Source: Thermoproteota archaeon (GTDB taxonomy: Archaea; Korarchaeota; Korarchaeia; Korarchaeales; Korarchaeaceae). From it: 64,000 nucleotides of DNA. The stretch lies in contig JALSOH010000004.1 in the NCBI GenBank assembly GCA_026986575.1, forward strand, positions 124,001 through 188,000, read 5' to 3'. The notes under the pieces were generated by a model that saw only the letters and a program-made list of their open reading frames with translations, was not told where the DNA came from and did not search any database. A program made the translations under genes and the position numbers. Of the stretch, positions 4,116 through 42,169 are shown one piece after another (the first letter of the stretch is position 1; each line of letters opens with the position of its first letter).

Positions 4116-4904
4116 TTGTCCGACAGGTTCGAGGAGCTGGAGGAGAGGATAGAAGAACTGCTGGAGAAGGATCGCGGCAAGAAGAGGATTAAAGATGAAG
4201 AGTATTTCAAGGTAAGGCAATTGGCCTTCGATAACAGGACGATAAGGTCCCTCCTGAAGCTGTTCAATAAGGGAGTGCTGGACGATCTGACATGGGTCAT
4301 CAGCGCTGGAAAGGAATCCCTTGTCTTGGCCGGAAGGGGACCCGAGGGCGAGCTAGCGATCAAAATATACAGGATCTATACAGCTAATTTCAGGAAGTAC
4401 TTGGACTACATCATAGGAGACCATAGATTTCCTCCTGTCAAGGATCGAGACAAAATCATACCCCTGTGGGCGAAGAAGGAGTTTAGAAACCTCAAGAGAC
4501 TGAGGGATGTGGGAGTGAGGGTGCCCAAGCCCGTAGATGTTGTAGGGAACGTACTGGTGATGGGGTTCATAGGCAGAGAGGGGGTACCTGCCCCTCTCCT
4601 GAAGGACACTGATCTAGAGGATCCTGAGAGATACCTCAAGGAGATACTTGAGGATATAAGGAAGTCTTACGTAAAGGCTGACCTAGTGCACGGGGATCTC
4701 AGCGAGTATAACGTGATGGTGTGGGAGGACCATCCTTGGATCATAGATGTGTCCCAAGCGGTGGTCACAGTGCACCCTTTATCCTTCTCATTGCTCCTAA
4801 GGGACTTGGAGAGGGTCACCTCATTTTTTAAAAAGCGATACCGGATAGATGTCCCGGACCCTTACAAGCTTGCCGAGGAGCTTGCTAGGACTAAGGAAGT
4901 TTGA
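4116..4904 (+). CDS. rio1: RIO1-type serine protein kinase / ATPase
   Basis: The 262-residue RIO kinase has a catalytic HGDLSEYN (H-x-D-x4-N) near residue 192 and the metal-binding aspartate in WIIDVSQA. An N-terminal helical domain precedes the nucleotide-binding segment around AGKESLVL. RIO1 acts in late small-subunit maturation, fitting the adjacent Pno1/Dim2 gene, its known partner on pre-40S particles in eukaryotes. TTG 4116 is the start, about nine bases after GAGGGAGA. Confidence 0.95.
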   Translation: MSDRFEELEERIEELLEKDRGKKRIKDEEYFKVRQLAFDNRTIRSLLKLFNKGVLDDLTWVISAGKESLVLAGRGPEGELAIKIYRIYTANFRKYLDYIIGDHRFPPVKDRDKIIPLWAKKEFRNLKRLRDVGVRVPKPVDVVGNVLVMGFIGREGVPAPLLKDTDLEDPERYLKEILEDIRKSYVKADLVHGDLSEYNVMVWEDHPWIIDVSQAVVTVHPLSFSLLLRDLERVTSFFKKRYRIDVPDPYKLAEELARTKEV

Positions 4905-4919
4905 GAGGGGGTCTTACTC

Positions 4920-5516
4920 TTGCAGGAGATCAGGGTCAGGATACCAAAAGACAGGATAGGAGTTCTGATAGGCAAGAGGGGTTCCACCAAGGCCATGATA
5001 GAGGAGCTCACCGGAGCCGAGATTGTGGTCGACAGCGGGACTGGAGAGGTCCTAATAAGGTTCCCTGATATTCCGGAGGATCCTCTAATGCCGATGAAGC
5101 TCGAATCTGTGATAAGGGCGATAGGCAGAGGTTTCAATCCTGAGATAGCGCTGAAGCTCCTGCAGGACGACTATGTGCTCGAGATCATAGATATAAGGAG
5201 GTTTGTTGGTGCTAGGAAGAATGCTTTGAAGAGAATGAGAGGGAGGCTAATCGGAGAGAAGGGGAAGGCTCGTTCCTACATAGAGAGCAGGACCAACACA
5301 CATATATCGGTTTACGGGCATACTGTCTCCATAATCGGAAGGACGTACGACGTCGTAGCCGCTAGAGAAGCGGTGTTCTCGCTGCTGGAGGGATCTATGC
5401 ACTCCACGGCCTACAGGGCCATGGAGAAGAAGATAGCTGAAATGAGTAAGAGGGCAATGCTCGATGAGAGTCTGCTGAGGAAGGCCCTCAAGGAGACTAT
5501 GAACGAGGAGAAGTGA
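4920..5516 (+). CDS. KH-domain ribosome-assembly protein, Pno1/Dim2 family
   Basis: 198 residues with two KH domains. The first has the loop IGKRGST at about residues 16-23, and the second has the canonical GxxG form IGEKGK at about residue 110 followed by YIESRTNTHISVYG. The length and the neighbouring rio1 gene match the archaeal Pno1/Dim2 protein that binds the 3' end of 16S rRNA precursors. It starts at TTG 4920 behind GAGAGGGGGT. Its stop overlaps the leader of top6B. Confidence 0.9.
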   Translation: MQEIRVRIPKDRIGVLIGKRGSTKAMIEELTGAEIVVDSGTGEVLIRFPDIPEDPLMPMKLESVIRAIGRGFNPEIALKLLQDDYVLEIIDIRRFVGARKNALKRMRGRLIGEKGKARSYIESRTNTHISVYGHTVSIIGRTYDVVAAREAVFSLLEGSMHSTAYRAMEKKIAEMSKRAMLDESLLRKALKETMNEEK

Positions 5517-5527
5517 GAGGTGTTTCT

Positions 5528-7090
5528 ATGTCCGAGGATGTGAGGCTCGAGGAGATAAGTGCTGCGGATTTCTTCTACAGAAATAAATCCTTAGCCGGGT
5601 TCGACAATCCTGTCAGAGCTACTTATACGATAGTCAGAGAGCTGGTGGAGAATGCTCTAGATGCGGCGGAGATGGCGGAAAATCCTCCGAAGATACAGGT
5701 AGTGATGGCTGGGTACAAGGAGAGGGACATGGGGTCCCTGCCCTGGTATAGGATAGTTGTCGCAGACAACGGAATAGGGTTAGGGCCAGATGAGATACCT
5801 AGAGCCTTCGGCAGAGTCTTCGTCAGTTCCAAATACAGGCTGATCCAGAGCAGAGGTACCTTCGGTCTCGGAGGAACTATGGCCCTCCTTTACGGGCAGA
5901 TAACTACGAATATGCCGTTCAAGGTAACGTCAGCTAAGAAGGGAGAGCCCGTTTATGAGATAACCATGATGATAGACATTCAGAAGAACGAGCCTGTGGT
6001 ACTGGACAGGAGGGTCTTAAAGGGCATATCTAGGGCTTCCTTCACTGTAGTGGAATCCTACTTCGAGGGTAATTACCCCAGGGCCAAGAGGAAGATAATA
6101 GATTACCTGCACCAGACGGCCATAGTCGTCCCCTACGCGGACATCACCTTCATGGACCCGGAAGGGAACTTCTACGTATTCCCCCGAAGTACTGACAGGC
6201 TGCCTCCCCGACCAAAGGAGGCGCTATATCATCCAAAGGGAGTGGATTTAGAGCTATTACAGAGGCTGCTGCAGGCAACGAAGGCACGCACCCTCAAGTC
6301 GTTCTTGACTAGGCACTTCCAGAGGGTAGGGGGTAAGACCGCCAGCGAGGTCCTGAAGATAGCTGGCTTGCCTCCAGATAAGAAGCCCTCCAAACTCACG
6401 AAGGAGGAGATAGAGAGGCTGTTTCGTGCGTTGAAGAGTTACGACAAGTTCCTCCCTCCCGACCCCAGCGTCCTATCTCCCCTAGGAGCGGACCTATTCG
6501 AGTCGGGTATAAAGAAGGAGTTGCGGCCTGAGTTCGTCAAAGCAGTTCAGAGACCGCCTTCAGTTTACGAGGCTCACCCTTTCATAGTAGAGACCGCCAT
6601 AGCCTATGGAGGGCAAATAAGACCTACGGGGGAGATACAGCTGTATAGGTACGCCAACAGGATACCCCTCCTCTACGACGTTTCAAGCGATGTATCATAC
6701 CAGATAATTAAGAGAATAGACTGGAGTAATTACGGCATAAAGAGTCCCGAGGATGAGCCGATCGTCTTCTTCGTTCACATAGTCTCCACTAAGGTTCCGT
6801 TTAAGACCGTAGGTAAGGAGTTCATAGCTAACGTACCTGAGGTGGCCAAGGAGATCGAGCTGGGGCTGAGAAACTGTGCTAGAGACCTGAGGATCTTCCT
6901 GAGTCGTAAGAGAAGGAAGGAGATGCTAAGAAGGAGGTACGAGTTGTTCAGGATGTACTACCAGATAATAGCGGAGACCTTGGAGGAATTGCTCGGTGAG
7001 CGCCCTCCCGTGGAGAATCTGCTGGATAAGTTGAGGGTTAAAGTAGGTGATGAGGATGGAGGAGATGGAGGTCAAGAAGAGAGCCCTTGA
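5528..7090 (+). CDS. top6B: DNA topoisomerase VI subunit B
   Basis: 520 residues. The GHKL ATPase motifs appear in order: ELVENALDA, DNGIGL, and the glycine lid GTFGLGGTMALLYGQ. An H2TH-like helical insert (FLTRHFQRVGGKTASEVL) and the transducer domain follow. Subunit B binds ATP and closes around DNA while subunit A cuts. ATG 5528 is chosen over GTG 5513 because GAGAGGTG lies just upstream of it. It overlaps top6A by about 40 bases, so the two are co-transcribed and probably translationally coupled. Confidence 0.97.
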   Translation: MSEDVRLEEISAADFFYRNKSLAGFDNPVRATYTIVRELVENALDAAEMAENPPKIQVVMAGYKERDMGSLPWYRIVVADNGIGLGPDEIPRAFGRVFVSSKYRLIQSRGTFGLGGTMALLYGQITTNMPFKVTSAKKGEPVYEITMMIDIQKNEPVVLDRRVLKGISRASFTVVESYFEGNYPRAKRKIIDYLHQTAIVVPYADITFMDPEGNFYVFPRSTDRLPPRPKEALYHPKGVDLELLQRLLQATKARTLKSFLTRHFQRVGGKTASEVLKIAGLPPDKKPSKLTKEEIERLFRALKSYDKFLPPDPSVLSPLGADLFESGIKKELRPEFVKAVQRPPSVYEAHPFIVETAIAYGGQIRPTGEIQLYRYANRIPLLYDVSSDVSYQIIKRIDWSNYGIKSPEDEPIVFFVHIVSTKVPFKTVGKEFIANVPEVAKEIELGLRNCARDLRIFLSRKRRKEMLRRRYELFRMYYQIIAETLEELLGERPPVENLLDKLRVKVGDEDGGDGGQEESP

Positions 7091-8156
7091 GCTAGCCAAG
7101 GAGATTGCCGAGAGGATAAAGCAGGGAGAGTTCCCCGAGATAGAATATCCCCCGAACAGTCAGAAGAACATACTGTTCGATGAGGACATAGGCTACATAT
7201 TCAGCCCCAAGACCTACAGTAAGATAAGAGGTTCTAGAGTGAAGAGTCTCAAGACTCTGGCTGGCGTCCTGTACGGACTGAGCAGGGCGCTAGATCACCT
7301 AGAGAACGGACTTACCATGACAAAAAGGGATTTCTACTATGTGCATAAAGTGGAGAGGCTCAAGGGAACTCTCTTTCCCGAGGATCAGAGGGAAACTGAT
7401 GCCAGAATAGTGCTTATGGAACTCATACTCGGAATGCCTAGGGAGGCCTTTTCCATAACAAGCGATCCCAGGGGATGGATCTACGGAGATATAGAGCTCA
7501 TTGACAGATCAGGAAGAATCCTGAGAGCCGATCAGGTGGGAGAGATGGGGTATTCCGTACCACCGAGGCCTGAGAACATAAAGTTCAAGAGGATTGGTGT
7601 CAAGGCAGTCGTCGCCATAGAGAAGGTGGGTCCTGCCAAGAACATGATCGAGTTAGGTATCCCCGAGGAGAGAAAGATCGCCATCGCGATTTTACAGGGA
7701 CAGGCTTCTAGGAGCATGAGGAGATTCCTGAGGATGCTATCTGATGAAGGGGTCCCAATTGCTATACTCACGGACTTGTCCCCTTGGTCCCTCAGGATAG
7801 CGGCCACCGTGATATACAACAGCATAAATTCCGCCCACATACCTTATCTAGCGTCTCCTGAGGCTAGATTCATTGGCATACTCACGAAGGATGTAGAGGT
7901 GGGGTTCTTCAGGGATTATCAGTTCGCCCTCGAACCCCTCACTCCCGCGGATCTCAAGGCCGCTCAGGACAATCAGTTCCTTCCCAACCTCCAGAACGAG
8001 TTCTGGCAGAGGGAGAATAGGTGGTTCTTGGAGAAAAAGAAGAAGGCAGAGATAGAGATATTTAAGGCCATGAGTCCCACTGCCAAGAAGCTGAAGGAAC
8101 TATTCGTCGAGTACTTGAGGGAGAAGCTGGATGAACACTTGGGAATAAGTATCTGA
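7050..8156 (+). CDS. top6A: DNA topoisomerase VI subunit A (Spo11-like), with altered Toprim motif
   Basis: About 368 residues. The catalytic tyrosine sits in TKRDFYYVHK within the 5Y-CAP domain. The Toprim glutamate is in VVAIEKVG. The Toprim D-x-D, which normally reads DADPYG or similar, reads TDLSPWS, so the second metal-binding acid appears to be serine. The rest of the Toprim core (GQASRSMRRFLRML, PEARFIGI) is conserved. Starts at 7050, 7056 and 7065 are all possible inside the end of top6B; 7050 directly follows GTAGGTG. Confidence 0.93.
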   Translation: MRMEEMEVKKRALELAKEIAERIKQGEFPEIEYPPNSQKNILFDEDIGYIFSPKTYSKIRGSRVKSLKTLAGVLYGLSRALDHLENGLTMTKRDFYYVHKVERLKGTLFPEDQRETDARIVLMELILGMPREAFSITSDPRGWIYGDIELIDRSGRILRADQVGEMGYSVPPRPENIKFKRIGVKAVVAIEKVGPAKNMIELGIPEERKIAIAILQGQASRSMRRFLRMLSDEGVPIAILTDLSPWSLRIAATVIYNSINSAHIPYLASPEARFIGILTKDVEVGFFRDYQFALEPLTPADLKAAQDNQFLPNLQNEFWQRENRWFLEKKKKAEIEIFKAMSPTAKKLKELFVEYLREKLDEHLGISI

Positions 8157-25427: not shown

Positions 25428-25470
25428 GAAACTTATATTTCTCCCCCCCCCCAGAATCAGGGTGATCATA
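25428..25470 (+). promoter_or_regulatory. Promoter and ribosome site of the first peptide locus, with a C10 tract
   Basis: A TATA-like ACTTATATTTC at 25430-25439 is followed by an uninterrupted run of ten C residues (25443-25452) and then GGTGAT four bases before TTG 25471. The homopolymer lies between the TATA box and the predicted transcript start, where a length change would alter spacing. Confidence 0.55.
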
Positions 25471-25773
25471 TTGAAGATATATGGGATTGAAAGAGAGGTA
25501 TTTGCACTTTCTCTCGCAATCCTGTTAATACTGCCGTTAGTAGCCAGTATACCAAACTCCATGGGTGTCTGGATAGGGACCTATGTAAGAACGTGGTCTG
25601 TGAAGCGTGCTCACAGGATGGCTAGCTGGGCGCTTGATCAGATTACCGATCCCATCGGATGGGCAATAGGACACCATACTTGGTACACACGCCTCGCATC
25701 TATCGCACTCATAGCTTATACTGGCATTGGACCTTATTACGCGGCATTCACGATAGGATTCACTGTAGGGTGA
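25471..25773 (+). CDS. Leader-bearing hydrophobic peptide, candidate circular-bacteriocin-like precursor
   Basis: 100 residues. A basic start and a hydrophobic helix (ALSLAILLILPLVASIP, about residues 11-27) look like a leader. The remaining roughly 70 residues (from MGVWIGTY to the C-terminal FTIGFTVG) are cationic, aromatic and amphipathic, the size of mature circular bacteriocins such as enterocin AS-48. TTG 25471 is set by GGTGAT four bases upstream. The stop TGA overlaps the GTG start of a SpoIIM/DUF95 gene, and ABC transporter genes follow; SpoIIM/DUF95 and ABC proteins are standard partners in circular-bacteriocin operons. Function is inferred from size, leader and context; no family motif exists to confirm it. 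Confidence 0.6.
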   Translation: MKIYGIEREVFALSLAILLILPLVASIPNSMGVWIGTYVRTWSVKRAHRMASWALDQITDPIGWAIGHHTWYTRLASIALIAYTGIGPYYAAFTIGFTVG

Positions 25774-26312
25774 CAGAAATTATTAGAACATCCTGTTTAC
25801 CCGAGTTTTTTATTCTAATCATTTATCTATCATCGTTTGTTGTAGGTACATGGCACACCTTTAACGAAAATGGCGCTCGGGATGGATCCTTCCATCTGAA
25901 GGATGTTAAAAATATTAATATAGATTACCTCGATTTCTTCAGGATGGTATTGTTAAATAATTTAGTGGCAGGTATCTTAATCATTGTGGGAGGATGGTTG
26001 TTCTGCATACCGACTCTCTTAGTCCCCATAGCTTCGGGTTACTTTGCTGGGCTTTACTTTGGAGCTGCTTACAGAGCTTATGGACTCTTCATTTCCTTAA
26101 TTTTGTACATTCCCATGCCCTTGGAGATAGCCGCCATAGTTATCCTAGGTCATGTATCCTTCAAGCTATGTAAGGAGAATCTCAGGAGATTAAGGGGAAA
26201 CGACTCGGATGCTCCTTTGCTCAGAGGCCATATTAAATCTATCACATACGGTATTTTCCTCATAGTTGTAGGTGCTGTGATCGAGACAGTTATTCAATTC
26301 TACATCGGTTAA
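25770..26312 (+). CDS. SpoIIM/DUF95-family membrane protein
   Basis: 180 residues with about five membrane segments. The central block NNLVAGILIIVGG...PTLLVPIASGYFAGLYFG and the late YIPMPLEIAAIVILGH correspond to the conserved asparagine-rich first half and the P-x-x-x-E motif of SpoIIM (usually PHGxxE). It starts at GTG 25770, sharing four bases with the peptide stop, so translation is likely coupled. In bacteria, DUF95 proteins of bacteriocin operons take part in maturation, secretion or immunity; here such a role is inference. Confidence 0.75.
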   Translation: MTEIIRTSCLPEFFILIIYLSSFVVGTWHTFNENGARDGSFHLKDVKNINIDYLDFFRMVLLNNLVAGILIIVGGWLFCIPTLLVPIASGYFAGLYFGAAYRAYGLFISLILYIPMPLEIAAIVILGHVSFKLCKENLRRLRGNDSDAPLLRGHIKSITYGIFLIVVGAVIETVIQFYIG

Positions 26313-26342
26313 ATTCATGAATGAGATCGCCGAGGGAGATTT

Positions 26343-26936
26343 ATGAGGCTATTCTTTTCCTTCATGCTAGTGCTTCTCACGGGAATCATGGTACACCTTT
26401 ACTTCACTATGCCGTTCTTAAAGCCTAGTACCTCCACATACGCCGAAATGGATGTCCGCATTATAAGGGGATCTTTCCTACTCACTCCGGTATTTTCCAG
26501 CCTCATAGTCGTCCTGATATGGGCTGTGGAATCTTCTTTAGCCTCGCTCGTCATCAGAAGATCGGTGAGAGGGGCGGAAAGGTCCCACATAAATTTAGGC
26601 GTCATAATGAGCGAATTTTCCTTGGGATACGTTCCTGAATTTATCTTCCTCCTCATAATAGTCCCGCTCGTATGGTTCAACCTCCCTGAATACACAGTGA
26701 CCTCTGTGAAGGAGCTTATTAACGCATCTAAGAGCCTAGGAGAGTCTCCATTATACGTAAACGGGATGCTCGCTCTGATTGCTGTATCCATATCTCGCTA
26801 TCCCATATACGCAGCCATACTCAGATACAGATTGGATATAGGATGGAGGGAGACCCTCACTATCATCGCCCTGCTTATCATTGTTGATACACTCATAGCT
26901 TTGTGGGGAGGAGGGTTCGACTTAGGTAGGGGGTGA
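26343..26936 (+). CDS. Polytopic membrane protein of the peptide locus
   Basis: 197 residues with about five hydrophobic helices, preceded by GAGGGAGA before ATG 26343. It is not clearly related to a named family, though the general pattern resembles Yip1-type proteins. A membrane protein of almost the same length (199 residues) also follows the SpoIIM gene in the second peptide locus (39695-40294), so the position is conserved even if sequence similarity is weak. Possible roles are immunity or export. Confidence 0.65.
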   Translation: MRLFFSFMLVLLTGIMVHLYFTMPFLKPSTSTYAEMDVRIIRGSFLLTPVFSSLIVVLIWAVESSLASLVIRRSVRGAERSHINLGVIMSEFSLGYVPEFIFLLIIVPLVWFNLPEYTVTSVKELINASKSLGESPLYVNGMLALIAVSISRYPIYAAILRYRLDIGWRETLTIIALLIIVDTLIALWGGGFDLGRG

Positions 26937-26943
26937 GTTAGGC

Positions 26944-27591
26944 ATGAGAACTGAAGATAACCTCATCTTAGAGGTTAAAAGGATAAGTAAAAGGCTCGGG
27001 AAGAGACAGGTGTTAGCAGATGTGAGCTTCGACGTGAGGAATGGAGAGGTAGTCCTCATAAGGGGGCCCAATGGGTCGGGAAAGACGACGCTTCTAAGAA
27101 CCATTGCTGGGGTGTTTAGACCAGATTCCGGTCGAGTACTCCTATTGGGAAGGGATATTCACGAGGATATGGGTGTGAGGAGAGAAATCAGCTACTGTCC
27201 TGAGAGGCTAGGCCTTCTTGGGGATTACACAATCGAGGATAACATGATGTTCTTTACCAAAGTGTTCGGGAGATCGTTCGACGAGCACAGATTTAGAGAC
27301 TACGTGAAAGGGTTTCGGCTCGAGGGATACTCGGATGACAAGATATCCAAGCTCTCGGCTGGGACTAGGAAGAAGGTGGCTATCATCAGGACTCTCGTCT
27401 TCCCGGCTAGGCTGTACCTGCTTGACGAACCACTAGCTAACCTAGACGAGGAGAGCGTGAGCTTTTTAATTGAGGAAATTAGGAGAATGGCCGATCTAGG
27501 ATCTTCCTTCCTGATATCTTCTCACATAGAGTTCCCGGCTGCTGATCGTGAATTAGAGATGAGAGGTGGGGGACTTGTCGAGGTTAGGTGA
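26944..27591 (+). CDS. ABC transporter ATP-binding protein
   Basis: 215 residues, a single nucleotide-binding domain: Walker A RGPNGSGKTT, the signature LSAGTRKKV, Walker B LYLLDEP, and the switch histidine in ISSHI. The signature has SAGT instead of SGGQ. It is directly followed by two overlapping membrane genes, likely the permease. The operon context suggests export of, or immunity to, the upstream peptide. Confidence 0.93.
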   Translation: MRTEDNLILEVKRISKRLGKRQVLADVSFDVRNGEVVLIRGPNGSGKTTLLRTIAGVFRPDSGRVLLLGRDIHEDMGVRREISYCPERLGLLGDYTIEDNMMFFTKVFGRSFDEHRFRDYVKGFRLEGYSDDKISKLSAGTRKKVAIIRTLVFPARLYLLDEPLANLDEESVSFLIEEIRRMADLGSSFLISSHIEFPAADRELEMRGGGLVEVR

Positions 27592-28309
27592 CCTAATAGC
27601 GGGTCACCTCTACCTAATGGGTGGATTGACCAATGTCAGGGAGATCTTCGTGTTCTTGAGCCCACAGATCCTGTTTTTGGCACTAGCTGAGGTCATAGCA
27701 GGATCCAGGACGTATACAGAATTATTGATGGTTACTTCGTTGCTTGAGAGTTTTTCCTTAGTCATTACGTATATTCTCCTTGGTATCGTGGTGCCGGGGA
27801 GGCTAATCAGATTAAGCTACTCGATGAGAGATGCCGGAATGATGGAGATATTCCTGAATCAGGGGGTTGGATTGGATCAGGTATTGCTGTCTCTCTGGAT
27901 CGGTTCGTCCCTAAAATACTCCTTATACGTGATTGCAGGAAGCCTGATAGCCCTGCTCTCTTTATACCTAGCTGGATGGATGACAGTAGTCGAATTCCTA
28001 ACGGCATTGGGCGTGATCGCCGTCATGGTCACACTCTTCTCGGCAATTTGCATTACCCTATCTCTTATCCTTCCTCCCAGTGAAGCTCAATACTGGTCTC
28101 AATTAGTCTTTTTCCTGATCTTCGGATATTTATACTTAGGTTTCCTCAATCCCCGGAATTACAATGATATCGTGAGGCTCTTCTTGGGCGGATACTTAAA
28201 CCCCATGTCGCTGGGTGGAGGGGCCATAGCAACCTTTCTCGTAATAGTTTTACTGATAGGATTATCTGAGGAGAGGGGGGATATTATTGAAATTGATGAG
28301 GTTAAATAA
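27575..28309 (+). CDS. ABC-2-like permease subunit
   Basis: About 244 residues with six probable membrane helices and no extracellular domain, the layout of ABC-2 export permeases. TTG 27575 behind GAGGTGGGG is the best start, overlapping the ATPase gene by 17 bases. It in turn overlaps the next gene by 23 bases. The family call is by topology and context, not by motif. Confidence 0.7.
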   Translation: MSRLGDLIAGHLYLMGGLTNVREIFVFLSPQILFLALAEVIAGSRTYTELLMVTSLLESFSLVITYILLGIVVPGRLIRLSYSMRDAGMMEIFLNQGVGLDQVLLSLWIGSSLKYSLYVIAGSLIALLSLYLAGWMTVVEFLTALGVIAVMVTLFSAICITLSLILPPSEAQYWSQLVFFLIFGYLYLGFLNPRNYNDIVRLFLGGYLNPMSLGGGAIATFLVIVLLIGLSEERGDIIEIDEVK

Positions 28310-28973
28310 TCTAAATGCCCAAATCACCTTGGAATTGACTTTGCTTGTAAGGGGTAGGGGAAAGAGGATCGGGTGGTTAATTAGGGTACTCGTGGTCTCC
28401 ATGGCTGTGCTGTCGCTGGGTCTGCTAAGCTCACTGGAGTTGGGTAATCTCAAAAACATTTACCTATCACTCCCGGGTGTATGGCTCCTGTCTTCGGCCT
28501 TGATGATGGATAATACGGTCGAGATAAAGAATAGCGGTCTTGCTGAGATTTTGCTCCAGACATATGGGCCTTCATATTTGGGTGTGAGGTATCTCCTATA
28601 TACTGTGGTAACGATACTCCTATCAATATCCTTTATTTTGCTGGGAGGCTCTGTAGTTTCACTGATGGTTGGGATAGGATTATCGGGTTTGGATGCCATT
28701 TCCTTGCTATCTCTCTCCGTCATAGGTTCAACGGCTTTAATGACCGTTACAGTCTTATTATCGGTGAAAATTGGTGGCCTGAGGTTATTAGACACCTTTT
28801 CCCTAGCAAGTGGCGGACTTACCCTCCTCCTGATCATTTCCATGCCTTCTATATTGGAGGCGCTTAATCAAGAGTTGTTTGTTTGTATGTTGCTCGCTGG
28901 GACATTCTCCATAGCTGTTCTGACTATAGTGTACCTTAAGAGGCATGACTTTCCGGCATTATTAACAATCTAG
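28287..28973 (+). CDS. Membrane protein, probable second permease or immunity subunit
   Basis: 228 residues with six hydrophobic segments. TTG 28287 lies four bases after GGGGGGAT and is nested in the end of the previous permease gene, so the two are translated together. It is the last gene of the operon starting at 25471. The following 1.1 kb is non-coding or decayed. Confidence 0.65.
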   Translation: MKLMRLNNLNAQITLELTLLVRGRGKRIGWLIRVLVVSMAVLSLGLLSSLELGNLKNIYLSLPGVWLLSSALMMDNTVEIKNSGLAEILLQTYGPSYLGVRYLLYTVVTILLSISFILLGGSVVSLMVGIGLSGLDAISLLSLSVIGSTALMTVTVLLSVKIGGLRLLDTFSLASGGLTLLLIISMPSILEALNQELFVCMLLAGTFSIAVLTIVYLKRHDFPALLTI

Positions 28974-31950: not shown

Positions 31951-32466
31951 TTACCCTTCAGCTGAACTCTCTCCGCTTTCTTCACCGCTCCTCTTCTCCT
32001 TCCAAGGTTCTCTTAGTTCTCCTGGCTCTGAGAGCTTATCACCGTACTTGTAGAACAATATGTAGATGAAATAGCTCCCTGCCACTAAGAAGGCAAAGTC
32101 ACGAAGCTCTTTGCCGGGAATTAAGTCTGAGCTAATCCCCAGTCTGATGAGCGTATACGGATAAAGCACTACCATCATAACGTAGAAGGTTATCAGAGAG
32201 AAGAAGACGTATATGAGAGCATATCTCGTTCTCCTTACTTCCAGCATGTAGTAGTCGATCGCACCGATCAGCCCGAAGCTGGTAATTACTATGAGCACTC
32301 CTTCTATAAAAGGTAGATACCTGTTATTCTTACTGGCAACCGGAAAGTATGTAATGAAATGATAGATTAGCATGGCAAAAAGCATAAATATAGTAAATAA
32401 TATCCTCTCTTTGGATGATTTATTTGAACCTCCTACATCTTGAGGCCTTAAGGTACGCATTGACAT
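31951..32466 (-). CDS. Membrane protein paired with the halocin-like gene
   Basis: 171 residues with four probable membrane helices and a long charged, Glu/Ser-rich C-terminal tail. It overlaps the end of the cysteine-rich precursor gene by 19 bases, so it is its operon partner. By analogy with halocin systems it may serve export or immunity, but no family motif is visible. Confidence 0.6.
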   Translation of the reverse strand: MSMRTLRPQDVGGSNKSSKERILFTIFMLFAMLIYHFITYFPVASKNNRYLPFIEGVLIVITSFGLIGAIDYYMLEVRRTRYALIYVFFSLITFYVMMVVLYPYTLIRLGISSDLIPGKELRDFAFLVAGSYFIYILFYKYGDKLSEPGELREPWKEKRSGEESGESSAEG

Positions 32467-33152
32467 ACCGTACCTACCTCGCTACAACATCCGCCATACA
32501 GGGTAAATACTAAGCAAAAGGGACACCAGACTATCAAGCATTCCCAGAATGCCGGAACATTTCTACAGCTAGCGCAGCAATTGAGAAGACATGAGATATT
32601 CCATCTACAGCAGTACGCGGAGCAACTGCAGTAGTCCCCACATGAATCATATCCTGGATATGCTGTGCAATTATGAGCGCAACTGCTCAAATTTATATAT
32701 GAACCATTGATGATTCTAGCATCAATTGATATATAGTCTTTATGAGAGCTGAGAATCAACGCTATACTTCTAATTTCATTGACTAATTTAGTGCCCTTCA
32801 TATAAATTAAATACTTTCTTTCCTTAAGTGGGATTAGAAGCAGTACTGCTGTGACTATATCTCCATCGACCGAAAATCTAATGAGCGAGCCTTTAGGTTG
32901 AGATGCCTTAAGATCATTTACATTAAGTGCGCCCCTCTCTATAAGAGAAATCACATCATTTGATTTTAAAGCCTCTGTAACGAAATTTTTGAGCTCTGCT
33001 CCCTCCAGTTTCATGTGATCCAATTCAACAAAATAGGGTTCATTTCTTAATCCTTTGTTCGCCTTTATTTTGAGATCTCCTGTACAAGTAATTGATACTA
33101 TGCTGAGAAGAGATGCCTTTAATGCTTCTTTAATAAACCTCCTTCTGCTCAA
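32448..33152 (-). CDS. Halocin C8-like precursor: twin-arginine leader and cysteine-rich C-terminus
   Basis: About 234 residues from TTG 33152; ATG 33173 and 33188 are alternatives. The N-terminus SRRRFIKEALKASLLSI is a twin-arginine signal. A middle domain of about 140 residues follows. The last 78 residues hold 18 cysteines, many in pairs (YCCRW, NCCASC, GGCCSE, CQC). Halocin C8 has the same order: Tat leader, an immunity domain, then a released ten-cysteine peptide. Sequence identity to it is not apparent by eye, so the relationship rests on layout. A membrane-protein gene overlaps its end. Confidence 0.65.
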   Translation of the reverse strand: MSRRRFIKEALKASLLSIVSITCTGDLKIKANKGLRNEPYFVELDHMKLEGAELKNFVTEALKSNDVISLIERGALNVNDLKASQPKGSLIRFSVDGDIVTAVLLLIPLKERKYLIYMKGTKLVNEIRSIALILSSHKDYISIDARIINGSYINLSSCAHNCTAYPGYDSCGDYCSCSAYCCRWNISCLLNCCASCRNVPAFWECLIVWCPFCLVFTLYGGCCSEVGTVCQCVP

Positions 33153-33249
33153 ATTAATTCTCCATAGGCGCATGAGCGTAATAGACATTCCTGAAATATA
33201 AATTCTACGTTCTATTCCTATGCATTCTTTCCTTGAGAATCTCACCTTA

Positions 33250-33945: not shown

Positions 33946-34312
33946 GATAAGGGAGAGGTATAGGGTCTACGCGATCATACTCTTCGGCTCACGGGCCAGG
34001 GGAGACTGGCTCCCTCACAGTGATTACGATCTTCTCGTCGTGGCCGAATTCAAAGAGCCCTTCCTAGACAGGATCTACGAGCTCTCCGGATTGGCTAAGG
34101 GCCCTGTGGAATTCCATCCCTACACCCTCTACGAGGTGAGGGAATTACTGAGGAGGGGCGTTCCATCGATCGTTGATGCCCTCGAGGAGGGCATCGTCCT
34201 CTACGAGGGGGAGGAGTTCAGGGAGGTGAGGGAGCTTTTCGAGGAGATGAAGAGGAAGGGGCTCAGGAGGAGCGGTGTATCGATCATATTGCCCGGAGGT
34301 GATCAGCCGTAG
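33920..34312 (+). CDS. MNT-type minimal nucleotidyltransferase (antitoxin)
   Basis: 130 residues. The polymerase-beta motif FGSRARGDWLPHSDYDLLV has the GSxARG and DxD elements complete. Partner HEPN genes are toxins neutralised by adenylylation in MntA-HepT systems. It overlaps the HEPN gene at its start, and its last 168 bases are antisense to the 3' end of the secreted-protein gene. Confidence 0.88.
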   Translation: MDLRKLVNRIRERYRVYAIILFGSRARGDWLPHSDYDLLVVAEFKEPFLDRIYELSGLAKGPVEFHPYTLYEVRELLRRGVPSIVDALEEGIVLYEGEEFREVRELFEEMKRKGLRRSGVSIILPGGDQP

Positions 34313-35284
34313 GTCTCTTCCACGCCCCCACCCAGCCGGGGATCTGGTGTTCCCGAGTTTTATCGACCCTTCACCCTTCAATACGCTTCTAACGTCGGAT
34401 ATGAAGATCTGAGGTGTGTTGCAAGATCCCAAGCATCCGCAGTAGCTGTAGTAGGGACATGGATCCCTTTTCGTGTGGGTCATCATGTAGCTGACGAACA
34501 TGATACCTCCCAGATCCCTCAGCTCCAGCCCGCACGTCCCGTTAACTAGCGTGTTGGCGGAGCCGCACGACCCCCCGCAGTTCGCTGCTGGTTCACTGCC
34601 CGATAGGGTGATCAGCGCTACGCCCTCACCCATGCCCAAGAACCTCGCTCTGAAGATCATGTGAACGTCGCATGCCGTGCGAGGTGGTTTCTGTCTCGTG
34701 CACCCACTCGCCCTGCCATGTTCGTAGTAAAACCACCAGACATTCCCCTCGGGGTGCATGAGCCCGTGATATATCTCGTTGCACCTCCACATACCATCTC
34801 CGTAACCCTCTGATGGTCCGCTCAGCCTCCTCCACCCCTTCTCCTCCCTAATCCAGAGATCCGCGACCCCTCTCAGGGGGTCCAGTAGGGTGGGCGGTAA
34901 GTCGGCGAAGATCCTAGAAGGCACGCTGCTAAGGGCTAGCTCTGATGCCAGCATCTCGATATAGTGGATGTCGTGACTCCCGTTGAGGGACCATATTATA
35001 ACGAACGGGAGGGTCCTGTTGATTCGCTCGGCGTAATCGAGCAGCTTCCTTATCTCTAACCTGTTAAACCTGAGTGGAGGGACGACGAGGGCGAGAGAAC
35101 CTAGCCTCCTCCCGTATCTCTCGAATACCTCCTTCTCCTTGGCGTAATATTCAACGTCAGGGAGGGATTTGAGGAACATCTCCTTCACGGAATTCCCCCT
35201 AGGAGCTAAGCTTAAGACAAGTCCGCCGATGAGTAGGATAAGGAATAGAGAATTAAGAGCCCTCCTATCGACCGTGGGATCCAT
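34145..35284 (-). CDS. Secreted cysteine-containing protein, unknown family
   Basis: About 379 residues from ATG 35284. A signal peptide (ALNSLFLILLIGGLVLSLAP) is followed by an extracytoplasmic domain with cysteines concentrated between residues 225 and 310 (NCGGSCGS, DPCPYYSYCGCLGSC). The C-terminal 56 codons overlap the nucleotidyltransferase gene tail to tail. A TATA-like CTTATAACA precedes it. I do not recognise it; its closeness to the cysteine-rich halocin-like gene may be coincidental. Confidence 0.6.
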   Translation of the reverse strand: MDPTVDRRALNSLFLILLIGGLVLSLAPRGNSVKEMFLKSLPDVEYYAKEKEVFERYGRRLGSLALVVPPLRFNRLEIRKLLDYAERINRTLPFVIIWSLNGSHDIHYIEMLASELALSSVPSRIFADLPPTLLDPLRGVADLWIREEKGWRRLSGPSEGYGDGMWRCNEIYHGLMHPEGNVWWFYYEHGRASGCTRQKPPRTACDVHMIFRARFLGMGEGVALITLSGSEPAANCGGSCGSANTLVNGTCGLELRDLGGIMFVSYMMTHTKRDPCPYYSYCGCLGSCNTPQIFISDVRSVLKGEGSIKLGNTRSPAGWGRGRDLRLITSGQYDRYTAPPEPLPLHLLEKLPHLPELLPLVEDDALLEGINDRWNAPPQ

Positions 35285-35376
35285 GCATCCTTTCCTATGT
35301 CGTACCGGGTGCAATGTTATAAGATCTGATGCGCTGCCCTCGAGTCAGTTTTTAATTTCGAGGGGAGCAATAAATT

Positions 35377-39258: not shown

Positions 39259-39597
39259 TTAGAGGGTTGAAGGGTCAACCTCAGCCATTGGATATACTCC
39301 TCCCAGGGGGAACTGGGCCTCGTTCAATATCCTCCTTATGGATTCCGCGTCCGGGGACTCCCAGCAGCAGTAAATCCTCTCGATTAAGCCTTCCTCTGTT
39401 AGTTGGACCCATGTGTTAATCAATCTGACCTCTTGGGTGGTGAGGTCCCTCACCTTCTTCCCCATAGCGGAGGCTACCTCAACGGATACCGGCTCAGCCA
39501 TATCGTGCACAGCCAAGAACTTTGGGACATCCACGCGCGATATCAAACGCCTTTCATCGGTAAATCCTCTAACGAATCCTTGGAGACAACTGTTCAT
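39259..39597 (-). CDS. DUF4242-like small protein
   Basis: 112 residues. The segment VPKFLAVHDMAEPVS near residue 24, followed by CCWESPDAESIRRILNEAQF, matches the ferredoxin-like DUF4242 family (some bacterial members bind nickel). The start could be ATG 39597 or GTG 39534, the latter giving the family-typical N-terminus. It stands alone between decayed sequence and the second peptide locus. Confidence 0.6.
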   Translation of the reverse strand: MNSCLQGFVRGFTDERRLISRVDVPKFLAVHDMAEPVSVEVASAMGKKVRDLTTQEVRLINTWVQLTEEGLIERIYCCWESPDAESIRRILNEAQFPLGGVYPMAEVDPSTL

Positions 39598-39694: not shown

Positions 39695-40294
39695 TTAGGG
39701 ATAGAGTGCGTGATTTTTTAATAACTGCTGGGCAGCAATCTTCGGATAATATATTCTCAGCACTATGTCCGTCAAAAGAAGCATGAGTATCATTGCTACG
39801 TCGTCCACCCTCTTCATCCCATATCTATGATTGAAAACACGATAGAAGTAGATGAAGGATAGAGTCGAGAAGGAAGTATCGATTAGCGCCTTGATTGATG
39901 AGTATAGCTCGATACTAGATGCTCCTATAATGGGAAGAAGCACTAGATCCGTTACTAGTGATATAGACGAAAAGAGGAAGTAAAAGGATACAACACTCAG
40001 TATTGGGGAGAGCGGACCCTTATACACGCTTCTATAAAACAAGAAGAGGTAAGTTAGTGCTCCCAGCAGGCCCCAAAGTAGGGCTCCGGTGAAGCTGCTT
40101 CCTAACAATACAAAATATGCGATAACATATGGGGGAATGGATTGATTGGCTACACCCAGCTCGTTCAAGACGATCATTAGGTACAAGGATTGAGTACCCG
40201 TGTAGAGCAAGTATAGGAGAAGGGGCCTTCTCCTATTGGATGGAGGGCTATTGTTAAGCAGATCCGGATTTTCTTCTCTTCTACATATGGCCAT
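39695..40294 (-). CDS. Polytopic membrane protein of the second peptide locus
   Basis: 199 residues with five probable helices; a GALLWGLLGALTYLFLF segment gives it a Yip1-like look. It overlaps the SpoIIM-type gene by 14 bases, so it is translationally linked. It corresponds in place and size to the 197-residue protein after SpoIIM in the first peptide locus. Confidence 0.65.
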   Translation of the reverse strand: MAICRREENPDLLNNSPPSNRRRPLLLYLLYTGTQSLYLMIVLNELGVANQSIPPYVIAYFVLLGSSFTGALLWGLLGALTYLFLFYRSVYKGPLSPILSVVSFYFLFSSISLVTDLVLLPIIGASSIELYSSIKALIDTSFSTLSFIYFYRVFNHRYGMKRVDDVAMILMLLLTDIVLRIYYPKIAAQQLLKNHALYP

Positions 40295-40841
40295 TTAACT
40301 TCACCAAGATGCAAGGTATTGAGAGATAATATTCTATAACTGATGATAATATTATCATAATTAAACTTAATAACGCCAATTTTGTTAAATAAACTAACTG
40401 ATCTCTGGAGAGGTCATAGTGATCCCCGCCATGGATGACCGTTACGGCGCTCGAAAGACCTACGGATGAGGAGATGAGGATAGAAGTGATCTCCAGCGGC
40501 CCGTGGAATAGAAAGCAGGGGAGTGCACCTGTCAAGTTTTCTCTGAGAATTTCCCTGACGATGCTACCTACCACCATGCCGTTGAAGCTAAGGGAGAGAG
40601 CCGTGAGCGTTCCAAGTGTCACATATCCTATGGAAAGAATCAGGATAACGGAACTGTTCAAGAGTATAAGTCCGCGTAAATCATAATGTCCATTAAAGGA
40701 ATGAGGAACGAAAACTCCACCTAACCCTTCTGTGTAAGATTGATCTGGGATCAGGAAACTTCCTAAGATCCCGGCCGCATAGAAAAGCGATGCTAAGATC
40801 AGTCCCTCACCCACCCTTGGGCCTTGTTTCGTCCCTACCAT
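40281..40841 (-). CDS. SpoIIM/DUF95-family membrane protein (second locus)
   Basis: 186 residues with about five helices. LLNSSVILILSIGYVTLGTL and the motif CFLFHGPLEITSILISSS (HGxxE, usually PHGxxE) identify SpoIIM/DUF95. ATG 40841 follows GGAGGATG and overlaps the end of the M48 protease gene by 35 bases. In bacteriocin operons this family accompanies leader-bearing circular peptides. Confidence 0.75.
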   Translation of the reverse strand: MVGTKQGPRVGEGLILASLFYAAGILGSFLIPDQSYTEGLGGVFVPHSFNGHYDLRGLILLNSSVILILSIGYVTLGTLTALSLSFNGMVVGSIVREILRENLTGALPCFLFHGPLEITSILISSSVGLSSAVTVIHGGDHYDLSRDQLVYLTKLALLSLIMIILSSVIEYYLSIPCILVKLNGHM

Positions 40842-41778
40842 GGCTCATCCTCCTGATGATCTCTATTCTCTTCTCCAAGCTAGGATGCGTTGGAAGTAGG
40901 GAGGGGGTTTCCTTCATTCCATATATTTTGATCAGAGCGTTTATCAGATCCTCTGGATTTGAGTAAGATGCTGCAATGAGATCGGCCTTGACCTCCCTCC
41001 TCCTTATCAGGATTAAGAAGACCGACAACGCTGCCAAGAAGCCAGCCACCACTAGCAGGAAGATTACGGGATCGCGTTTCGTTACTGCCCCCGTTAGGGA
41101 GGAGGGTACTTCGCCTACAAGGAGTAGCATCGCGTACATCAGTAGTGTGTAGCCCAGATACCTGGCGATGTCTCCTTCTTTATAATGGGCGAGTTCGTGG
41201 GCCAGTACGCTCTTGATCTCTCCATTAGACAGCACCTTAAGCAGATCCTCATTTATGAAGACAGTCGGTTGAACGATCCCGCCAAGAAGCGCGGTTTTCA
41301 TTAGAGAGGATCTGAATAATCGGAGCCTTATATTCTTCCTGATCTCCATCTTTCCCTTAAGATCCTCGAAAACCCTCTTCAGATCGTCCGGGGGGTCTCT
41401 CCCCTGACCAATCTTATCGAAGATTATAGGAACCAGATTAACTGTGACGAACAGTACTACGAGAAGAGTGGAGAATTCCACTAGGATGCTGTGGTTGGGA
41501 AGTGAGGAGATCACAGCAGCGTAGATGAAGATCAAATATAAATCGAAATAATTGAGCAGGAGATCCTTGAATAATCTCCTGGCTCCCGGGCTTTCCTTAC
41601 GAAGAATGGGGTCTACAAGGGAGAGAATTATAGCAGCTAGTATCAAGATGAAAAATCCTGTGATAAGGGGGTTAAGCCTGTACTCCACCACGAGGATTAC
41701 GGTAAGAGACATCATAGCTACTGTTATGAGAGCCATCACTAAATTGTAAAGAGAAAAAAATGGAGAGTTAGTTCCCAA
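40807..41778 (-). CDS. M48-family (HtpX-like) membrane metalloprotease
   Basis: 323 residues: N-terminal membrane helices, a catalytic HExxH in VLAHELAHYKEGD, two further helices, and a third zinc-ligand glutamate in RREVKADLIAAS. The PTHPSLEKRIEIIR ending is typical of M48B. It starts at TTG 41778 after GGGATC, ten bases after the end of the peptide gene. Its position directly behind a leader-bearing peptide suggests it cleaves the leader. Confidence 0.88.
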   Translation of the reverse strand: MGTNSPFFSLYNLVMALITVAMMSLTVILVVEYRLNPLITGFFILILAAIILSLVDPILRKESPGARRLFKDLLLNYFDLYLIFIYAAVISSLPNHSILVEFSTLLVVLFVTVNLVPIIFDKIGQGRDPPDDLKRVFEDLKGKMEIRKNIRLRLFRSSLMKTALLGGIVQPTVFINEDLLKVLSNGEIKSVLAHELAHYKEGDIARYLGYTLLMYAMLLLVGEVPSSLTGAVTKRDPVIFLLVVAGFLAALSVFLILIRRREVKADLIAASYSNPEDLINALIKIYGMKETPSLLPTHPSLEKRIEIIRRMSHGRDETRPKGG

Positions 41779-41788
41779 TGTAGATCCC

Positions 41789-42034
41789 TTATCCTATTAA
41801 AAAGCTCCCTACTGCTACAAGGGCGCCAGTGAGACCCGTAATTGGAGTACTGCATGCTGCTATTTTTGCTAGGGCTAAGAAATACCCTCCAAGTGCTACC
41901 GCAGCTGCTCCATAGTTACCTTTTGCAAGTAGATAGCCTATTCCCAACTGAGTGGCTGCAGGTGTTAATATAGGAACCACTAGTATTGCTATATTGAGGG
42001 CGAGGAGGGCTAGGGCTTTCTTTTCTGTCTTCAT
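41789..42034 (-). CDS. Leader-bearing Gly/Ala-rich peptide, candidate bacteriocin precursor
   Basis: 81 residues. MKTEKKALALLALNIAILVV is a basic-hydrophobic leader; the remaining ~55 residues (from ATQLGIGYLL to VAVGSFLIG) are Gly/Ala-rich, helical, weakly charged and contain one cysteine, much like circular bacteriocins. ATG 42034 follows GGGGGCGAT. It is the first gene of a four-gene operon with an M48 protease, a SpoIIM/DUF95 protein and a membrane protein. Like the first peptide it ends in glycine. The call is from context and composition. Confidence 0.6.
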   Translation of the reverse strand: MKTEKKALALLALNIAILVVPILTPAATQLGIGYLLAKGNYGAAAVALGGYFLALAKIAACSTPITGLTGALVAVGSFLIG

Positions 42035-42169
42035 ACCATCGCCCCCGTTCTCCTAACTATTAGAGAATTATAGAATAATGAGAATAATTATAAAAATCTT
42101 GCGCGAAATCTACTCTTTTTTTCACTAAAAAAAGAAAAACTGAAAAATTTGAAGATAACGGCGTCCTTG

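What the first reader, a model, noticed from the sequence alone, without database searches (positions are those of the whole stretch)
39695..42034. Second peptide operon with M48 protease, SpoIIM/DUF95 and a membrane protein
An 81-residue leader-bearing Gly/Ala-rich peptide is followed ten bases later by an HtpX-like M48 protease, then overlapping SpoIIM and membrane genes. The protease right behind the precursor suggests a dedicated leader peptidase, and no ABC gene is present, so export must differ from the first locus.
Basis: partly seen in the sequence, partly recalled or inferred. Interest (0 to 1): 0.86.

Follow-up and report, generated by a model that had tools for sequence, protein, structure and literature searches.

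The report
Archaeal bacteriocin-like peptide operon with protease
A heat-loving archaeon carries a small operon that looks like a microbial weapon-peptide cluster (a precursor, the membrane protein typical of ring-shaped bacteriocins, and a membrane protease that may process the precursor), and similar peptide cassettes turn out to be common in other archaea.

Summary
On the minus strand lie an 81-aa leader-bearing Gly/Ala-rich peptide, an M48 protease starting 10 bases later, an overlapping short SpoIIM/DUF95 gene and an overlapping membrane gene. The peptide is a real gene: dN/dS is 0.11 against a relative. The genome is Korarchaeum-like. It holds four short-SpoIIM loci, each behind a small secreted-type hydrophobic peptide. 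The same cassette recurs in other archaea, often in tandem, with conserved leaders and hypervariable cores: 36 of 50 short SpoIIM genes have such a peptide upstream, against 0 of 21 long SpoIIM genes. SpoIIM is the hallmark of bacterial circular-bacteriocin clusters, and the window's first locus has the gassericin A gene order. So this is most likely a bacteriocin-like peptide cluster. Cyclisation is not shown, and the precursor matches no known bacteriocin family. The M48 next to SpoIIM is confined to this genus, not common in archaea; it tracks short SpoIIM genes but sometimes stands alone. Leader cleavage by it is plausible, not shown. The missing ABC gene is usual in archaeal cassettes. 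DUF95 cassettes were published in 2014-2015 as membrane-remodelling systems, so this is a new variant of a known kind.

The parts
42088..42105 (-). TATA-box-like promoter stretch (CGCGCAAGATTTTTATAA), about 55-60 bases upstream of the peptide ATG
   Evidence: Read from the sequence; a near-identical stretch is kept upstream of the same gene in G015. Not tested experimentally.
41789..42034 (-). 81-aa precursor peptide: Sec-signal-like leader about residues 1-27, Gly/Ala-rich hydrophobic core about residues 28-81 (boundary inferred)
   Evidence: dN/dS 0.11; core resembles a methanogen cassette peptide beyond composition, p=0.007
40807..41778 (-). M48 metalloprotease (HtpX/BlaR1-like, N-terminal membrane segments, HELAH + ExxxD)
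   Evidence: distinct from the housekeeping HtpX
40281..40841 (-). Short SpoIIM/DUF95 (PF01944) membrane protein
39695..40294 (-). 199-aa membrane protein, no known family; candidate accessory or immunity protein
   Evidence: 54% identical partner in G002; not shown to be Yip1
25462..25773 (+). First-locus precursor (103 aa), same kind of cassette; sister system
25770..26312 (+). First-locus short SpoIIM
26343..28973 (+). First-locus membrane protein, ABC ATPase and two permease-like genes
   Evidence: same order as the gassericin A cluster

Best explanation
The operon makes a secreted, membrane-active, bacteriocin-like peptide of the DUF95 type. Inferred steps: the 81-aa precursor is targeted to the membrane by its signal-like leader; the short SpoIIM protein, with the 199-aa membrane protein, forms the membrane complex that matures, exports and/or tolerates the ~54-aa core; the membrane M48 protease, beside the precursor only in this lineage, most likely cuts the leader (or clears mis-processed precursor). 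The core may be joined head to tail as in bacterial DUF95 bacteriocins, but that step has no direct evidence here. A zinc protease makes no acyl-enzyme, so I would not assign ring closure to M48. Shown: gene order, coding selection, association of short SpoIIM with such peptides across archaea, presence/absence between close relatives. Inferred: export, cleavage, cyclisation, killing. My split: bacteriocin-like peptide cluster about 0.7; M48 as its leader peptidase about 0.4; core circular about 0.4.
For: Short SpoIIM genes have an upstream leader-bearing Gly/Ala-rich peptide in 8 of 12 korarchaeal and 28 of 38 other archaeal cases, against 0 of 21 long SpoIIM genes. In methanogen, Thermococcales- and Archaeoglobi-like genomes the leaders are conserved and the cores hypervariable, with up to six cassettes in tandem. 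SpoIIM is treated as class-defining for circular bacteriocins (PMC13289728; PMC8659200), and its removal makes mature leucocyclicin Q pile up inside the cell (reported in PMC7132975). SpoIIM proteins of the AS-48, gassericin A and B21AG clusters match the archaeal short profile (E=4e-14, 8e-8, 2e-13) and fall among the short, not the long, archaeal SpoIIM in a tree (weak support). The first locus has the gassericin A order precursor-SpoIIM-ABC-permease. M48 subfamily and short SpoIIM co-occur: all 4 genomes of the genus with short SpoIIM have it, 1 of 12 others does (hypergeometric p=0.003 by hand, genomes not independent). PMC8659200 reports M48 genes in two bacterial circular-bacteriocin clusters. 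The operon is absent from close relatives: a 190-base gap in G008 where the window has 3.7 kb, and no counterpart in G007.
Against: The precursor matches no bacteriocin profile in Pfam or NCBIfam, while AS-48 and gassericin A precursors do match in Pfam, and it aligns to them no better than its own shuffles. Structure prediction of the core is poor (pLDDT 65, two helices). No ABC ATPase in the operon. M48 without SpoIIM in G005 and apparently G014. Circularin A is made in a heterologous host from cirABCDE (PMC10028692), with no peptidase named among those genes, so a dedicated protease is not required in general.
Confidence: 0.62

Rival explanations
1. Same peptide cluster, but M48 serves immunity or quality control: it degrades mis-inserted or incoming peptide in the producer's membrane, like HtpX, while a general signal peptidase removes the leader.
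For: HtpX/M48 enzymes are membrane quality-control proteases (general knowledge). Many leaders in this family look Sec-type with an A-x-A-like end, which signal peptidase could cut. The other three loci of the genome lack M48.
Against: The gene directly follows the precursor and tracks short SpoIIM genes. It is a second, distinct M48 beside the housekeeping one.
Confidence: 0.3
2. The SpoIIM cassette is a membrane-remodelling or vesicle-forming system and the small peptide is a structural membrane subunit, as proposed for arCOG01996 cassettes.
For: PMC5898192 describes arCOG01996-Yip1-small membrane protein cassettes in Archaeoglobi, Methanococci and Thermococci and suggests membrane remodelling. 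Yip1 is confirmed here in a methanogen cassette.
Against: Hypervariable cores behind conserved leaders, tandem arrays of different peptides, presence/absence between close relatives, and the bacteriocin-cluster gene order of the first locus fit conflict peptides better.
Confidence: 0.15
3. Chance neighbours: an accessory HtpX paralogue lies beside an unrelated SpoIIM operon.
For: Lone M48 of the same subfamily in G005 and, as far as its contig shows, in G014.
Against: Overlapping genes in one operon, the same M48-SpoIIM-membrane gene order in three genomes (G000, G015, G002), and co-occurrence across the genus.
Confidence: 0.08

Closest known systems
Circular (head-to-tail cyclised) bacteriocin clusters, e.g. 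gassericin A and enterocin AS-48
   Same: Leader-bearing hydrophobic precursor next to a short SpoIIM/DUF95 membrane protein; the SpoIIM proteins are homologous. The sister locus also has ABC and permease genes in the gassericin order.
   Different: Precursor has no detectable sequence homology; no ABC gene in this operon; M48 protease present; archaeal host; cyclisation untested.
arCOG01996 (DUF95/COG1300) cassettes in archaeal dark-matter islands (PMC4158269, PMC5898192)
   Same: Paralogous short SpoIIM with small, fast-evolving membrane proteins, sometimes with an ABC exporter; accessory and variable.
   Different: Reported for Archaeoglobi, Methanococci and Thermococci with Yip1 and read as membrane remodelling; here in a korarchaeon, with M48 and without detectable Yip1.
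M48-bearing bacterial circular-bacteriocin clusters, group 1 of PMC8659200
   Same: M48 zinc peptidase encoded in the cluster.
   Different: There it lies three genes downstream of the precursor, in two bacterial members; here it is the next gene. I could not compare the sequences.
HtpX / Ste24 (M48) and BlaR1 (M56) membrane metalloproteases
   Same: Catalytic motif and fold family.
   Different: A separate subfamily, found only in this genus among 394 genomes at E<=1e-20.

Membership tests
Circular bacteriocins | SpoIIM/DUF95 gene adjacent to a leader-bearing precursor | tested here: met
   (here with M48 between the two)
Circular bacteriocins | Precursor matches a known circular-bacteriocin family (PF09221, PF12173 or the NCBIfam models) | tested here: not met
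   No match at E<=1; AS-48 and gassericin precursors match in the same Pfam library; shuffle test not significant
Circular bacteriocins | ATP-binding transporter gene in the cluster (precursor, DUF95 and ATP-binding protein form the minimum set in PMC8534725) | tested here: not met
   None in or beside this operon; present in the first locus
Circular bacteriocins | Compact multi-helix fold of the core | tested here: inconclusive
   AlphaFold2 on two sequences: two helices, mean pLDDT 65
Circular bacteriocins | N-to-C peptide bond and antimicrobial activity | not testable with these tools
   Needs mass spectrometry and killing assays
Archaeal arCOG01996/DUF95 cassettes | Short SpoIIM paralogue with small diverged membrane proteins, separate from the long SpoIIM | tested here: met
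Archaeal arCOG01996/DUF95 cassettes | Yip1 (PF04893) partner, frequent but not universal | tested here: not met
   199-aa protein has no Yip1 match by Pfam or profile comparison
Peptidase family M48 | HExxH and downstream ExxxD zinc-binding motif, Pfam score above cut-off | tested here: met
   79.7 bits against a cut-off of 20.3; residues invariant in three relatives

The most novel reading that the evidence does not exclude
Archaeal short-SpoIIM cassettes are a large, unrecognised archaeal class of cyclised bacteriocin-like peptides, and in this genus the M48 is their dedicated leader peptidase, the enzyme that has never been identified for circular bacteriocins.
Probability: 0.25. Interest if true: 0.82.

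Novelty: new variant of a known kind. Interest (0 to 1): 0.62.

Why it matters
How circular-bacteriocin leaders are removed is open: no peptidase has been characterised in the reported clusters (PMC8534725; PMC8659200). An operon with the protease next to the precursor gives a concrete enzyme-substrate pair to test. The survey also suggests that DUF95 cassettes published as membrane-remodelling systems are better read as families of hypervariable secreted peptides in hyperthermophilic archaea, a possible source of very stable antimicrobials and of archaeal competition systems.

Tried and rejected
Sequence homology of the precursor to known circular bacteriocins: Pfam, NCBIfam, PDB sequence search and alignment against shuffles all failed for this peptide. 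A single profile of the euryarchaeal precursors does not pick up the korarchaeal ones. Yip1 identity of the last gene: profile comparison negative. AlphaFold2 of the core: too poor to use for fold search. Viral origin: no relatives of this M48 in IMG/VR, no SpoIIM or peptide match in PHROGs. Known defence system: no PADLOC match. Small RNA or riboswitch near the operon: none. Plasmid relatives of this SpoIIM: none. The 2019 mBio survey of archaeal antimicrobial peptides (Makarova et al.) is not held, so I could not check whether it already covers these cassettes.

Full report
The observation. The four genes described are present and in the stated order on the minus strand: peptide 41789-42034, M48 40807-41778, SpoIIM 40281-40841, membrane protein 39695-40294, with a 10-base gap and then overlaps of 35 and 14 bases. 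Pfam gives Peptidase_M48 and SpoIIM well above cut-off and nothing usable for the first and last genes. The peptide is a real gene. Against the same operon in G015 (public contig JAOZFI010000006.1, Thermoproteota archaeon Aegir_M25_B233) its dN/dS is 0.11, lower than that of the other three genes (0.15-0.24), and a TATA-like stretch and a Shine-Dalgarno-like stretch upstream are kept.

The organism. The genome (G000) shares its genus with a single-contig genome of 1,590,757 bases. From memory that is the length of Candidatus Korarchaeum cryptofilum, so I take the host to be a Korarchaeum species; the database gives no name. The operon lies in an A+T-rich stretch of about 7 kb (G+C 41-50% against about 56% around it). 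In the close relative G008 the flanking sequences at 39525 and 43212 lie only 190 bases apart, and G007 has no counterpart of the operon either. It is an accessory locus.

The same kind of locus elsewhere. PF01944 is present five times in the genome: one long form (about 475 aa), found through most of the genus, and four short forms. Each of the four short forms has a small leader-bearing hydrophobic peptide upstream: this one, the first locus at 25.4-29 kb, C6 (L038) and C1 (L039). Searching 394 genomes with the short-SpoIIM alignment showed many archaea with several copies. Twenty such regions were read. They carry the cassette peptide - small membrane protein - SpoIIM, often followed by a Yip1-like gene (one tested by Pfam), with up to six cassettes in tandem. 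Leaders are nearly identical within a lineage (for example MNILKGNVLKVFGAVVLVSMIGALVAEPVALGDIG) while cores differ strongly. Contig lengths equal those I remember for Methanocaldococcus jannaschii, Pyrococcus horikoshii, Ferroglobus and Geoglobus; these names rest on memory.

Quantified association. With one fixed rule (60-125 aa, same strand, within 1.1 kb upstream, hydrophobic N-terminal stretch, Gly/Ala-rich weakly charged core), 8 of 12 korarchaeal and 28 of 38 other short SpoIIM genes have a candidate, against 0 of 21 long SpoIIM genes and 1 of 7 other forms. Caveats: several long-form loci hold only 350-700 bases upstream; at least one of the 28 is more likely the small membrane protein; and the first locus was missed for a start-codon reason.

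What it is. SpoIIM/DUF95 is treated as class-defining for circular bacteriocins (PMC13289728; PMC8659200). SpoIIM proteins from the AS-48, gassericin A and plantacyclin B21AG clusters match the archaeal short-SpoIIM profile and sit among the short archaeal forms in a tree, away from the long ones, with weak support. The gassericin A cluster reads precursor - SpoIIM - ABC ATPase - permease. The window's first locus reads precursor - SpoIIM - membrane protein - ABC ATPase - permease - permease; the ATPases are 31% identical, which is ordinary for ABC ATPases. I therefore read the operon as a bacteriocin-like peptide cluster. I do not file it as a circular bacteriocin: the precursor fails the known profiles, aligns to known ones no better than shuffles, and there is no ABC gene in the operon. 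Within archaea, the core resembles a methanogen cassette peptide beyond composition (45% over 42 positions, p=0.007 against shuffles, uncorrected).

The protease. The M48 subfamily occurs in 5 of 394 genomes at E<=1e-20, all in this genus. It is separate from the housekeeping HtpX that nearly every genome of the genus has. Four of its six occurrences lie next to SpoIIM (this one, G015, two in G002); G005 has it alone, and G014's copy is cut by the contig end on its upstream side and has no SpoIIM downstream. Across the genus, all four genomes with short SpoIIM have it and only one of twelve others does; p is about 0.003 if genomes were independent, which they are not. In one of the two G002 copies and in G014 the contigs end inside M48, so whether a precursor precedes it there is unknown. 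In the other G002 copy (L040) M48 follows SpoIIM and small membrane genes, and no clear precursor was recognised. No M48 was found beside SpoIIM in the other archaeal regions. Literature support is indirect: PMC8659200 notes M48 genes in two bacterial circular-bacteriocin clusters and says that no cleaving or cyclising enzyme is known; PMC8534725 says the same of peptidases and found only an M50 exception. Because a zinc peptidase forms no acyl-enzyme, leader removal or quality control is more likely for M48 than ring closure.

Export. The missing ABC gene does not set this locus apart, since most archaeal cassettes read here have none nearby. The leader is Sec-like, and an exporter could act in trans.

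Prior knowledge. DUF95 cassettes (arCOG01996) with small fast-evolving membrane proteins, Yip1 and sometimes an ABC exporter were described for Archaeoglobi, Methanococci and Thermococci and interpreted as membrane remodelling (PMC4158269, PMC5898192). In the held papers I found no one calling them circular-bacteriocin-like, but the most relevant survey (Makarova et al. 2019) is not held. The present locus adds a korarchaeal branch and an in-operon M48.

Noticed in passing
window 25462-28973 (+): First locus: precursor, short SpoIIM, membrane protein, ABC ATPase and two permease-like genes, close to the gassericin A gene order and just downstream of the rRNA region.
   Followed up: partly
L123 (G008), about 4755-7541: A close relative keeps the membrane protein, ABC ATPase and permeases of the first locus but lacks its precursor and SpoIIM; this could be a retained immunity module. 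G007 (L122, 1404-2405) shows only permease-like fragments there.
   Followed up: partly
window 32448-33245 and 31951-32466 (-): A 265-aa protein with a Tat-like leader (SRRRFIKEA) and a very Cys-rich C-terminus, next to a membrane gene: reminiscent of halocin C8-type precursors. No Pfam or NCBIfam match.
   Followed up: partly
window 34145-35314 (-): A 389-aa secreted-looking protein with Cys/Gly-rich patches; relatives in G007, G008 and G015; no family found.
   Followed up: no
L038 5062-6436 and L039 5243-6990: Two further precursor-SpoIIM loci in the same genome (contigs C6 and C1); the C1 precursor is nearly identical to one in G014.
   Followed up: partly
L092 3276-12029, L094 3587-11089: Tandem arrays of several SpoIIM-peptide cassettes with near-identical leaders and unrelated cores; arrays of this kind end in a Yip1-like gene, and a related one also in a CARDB-domain protein.
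   Followed up: partly
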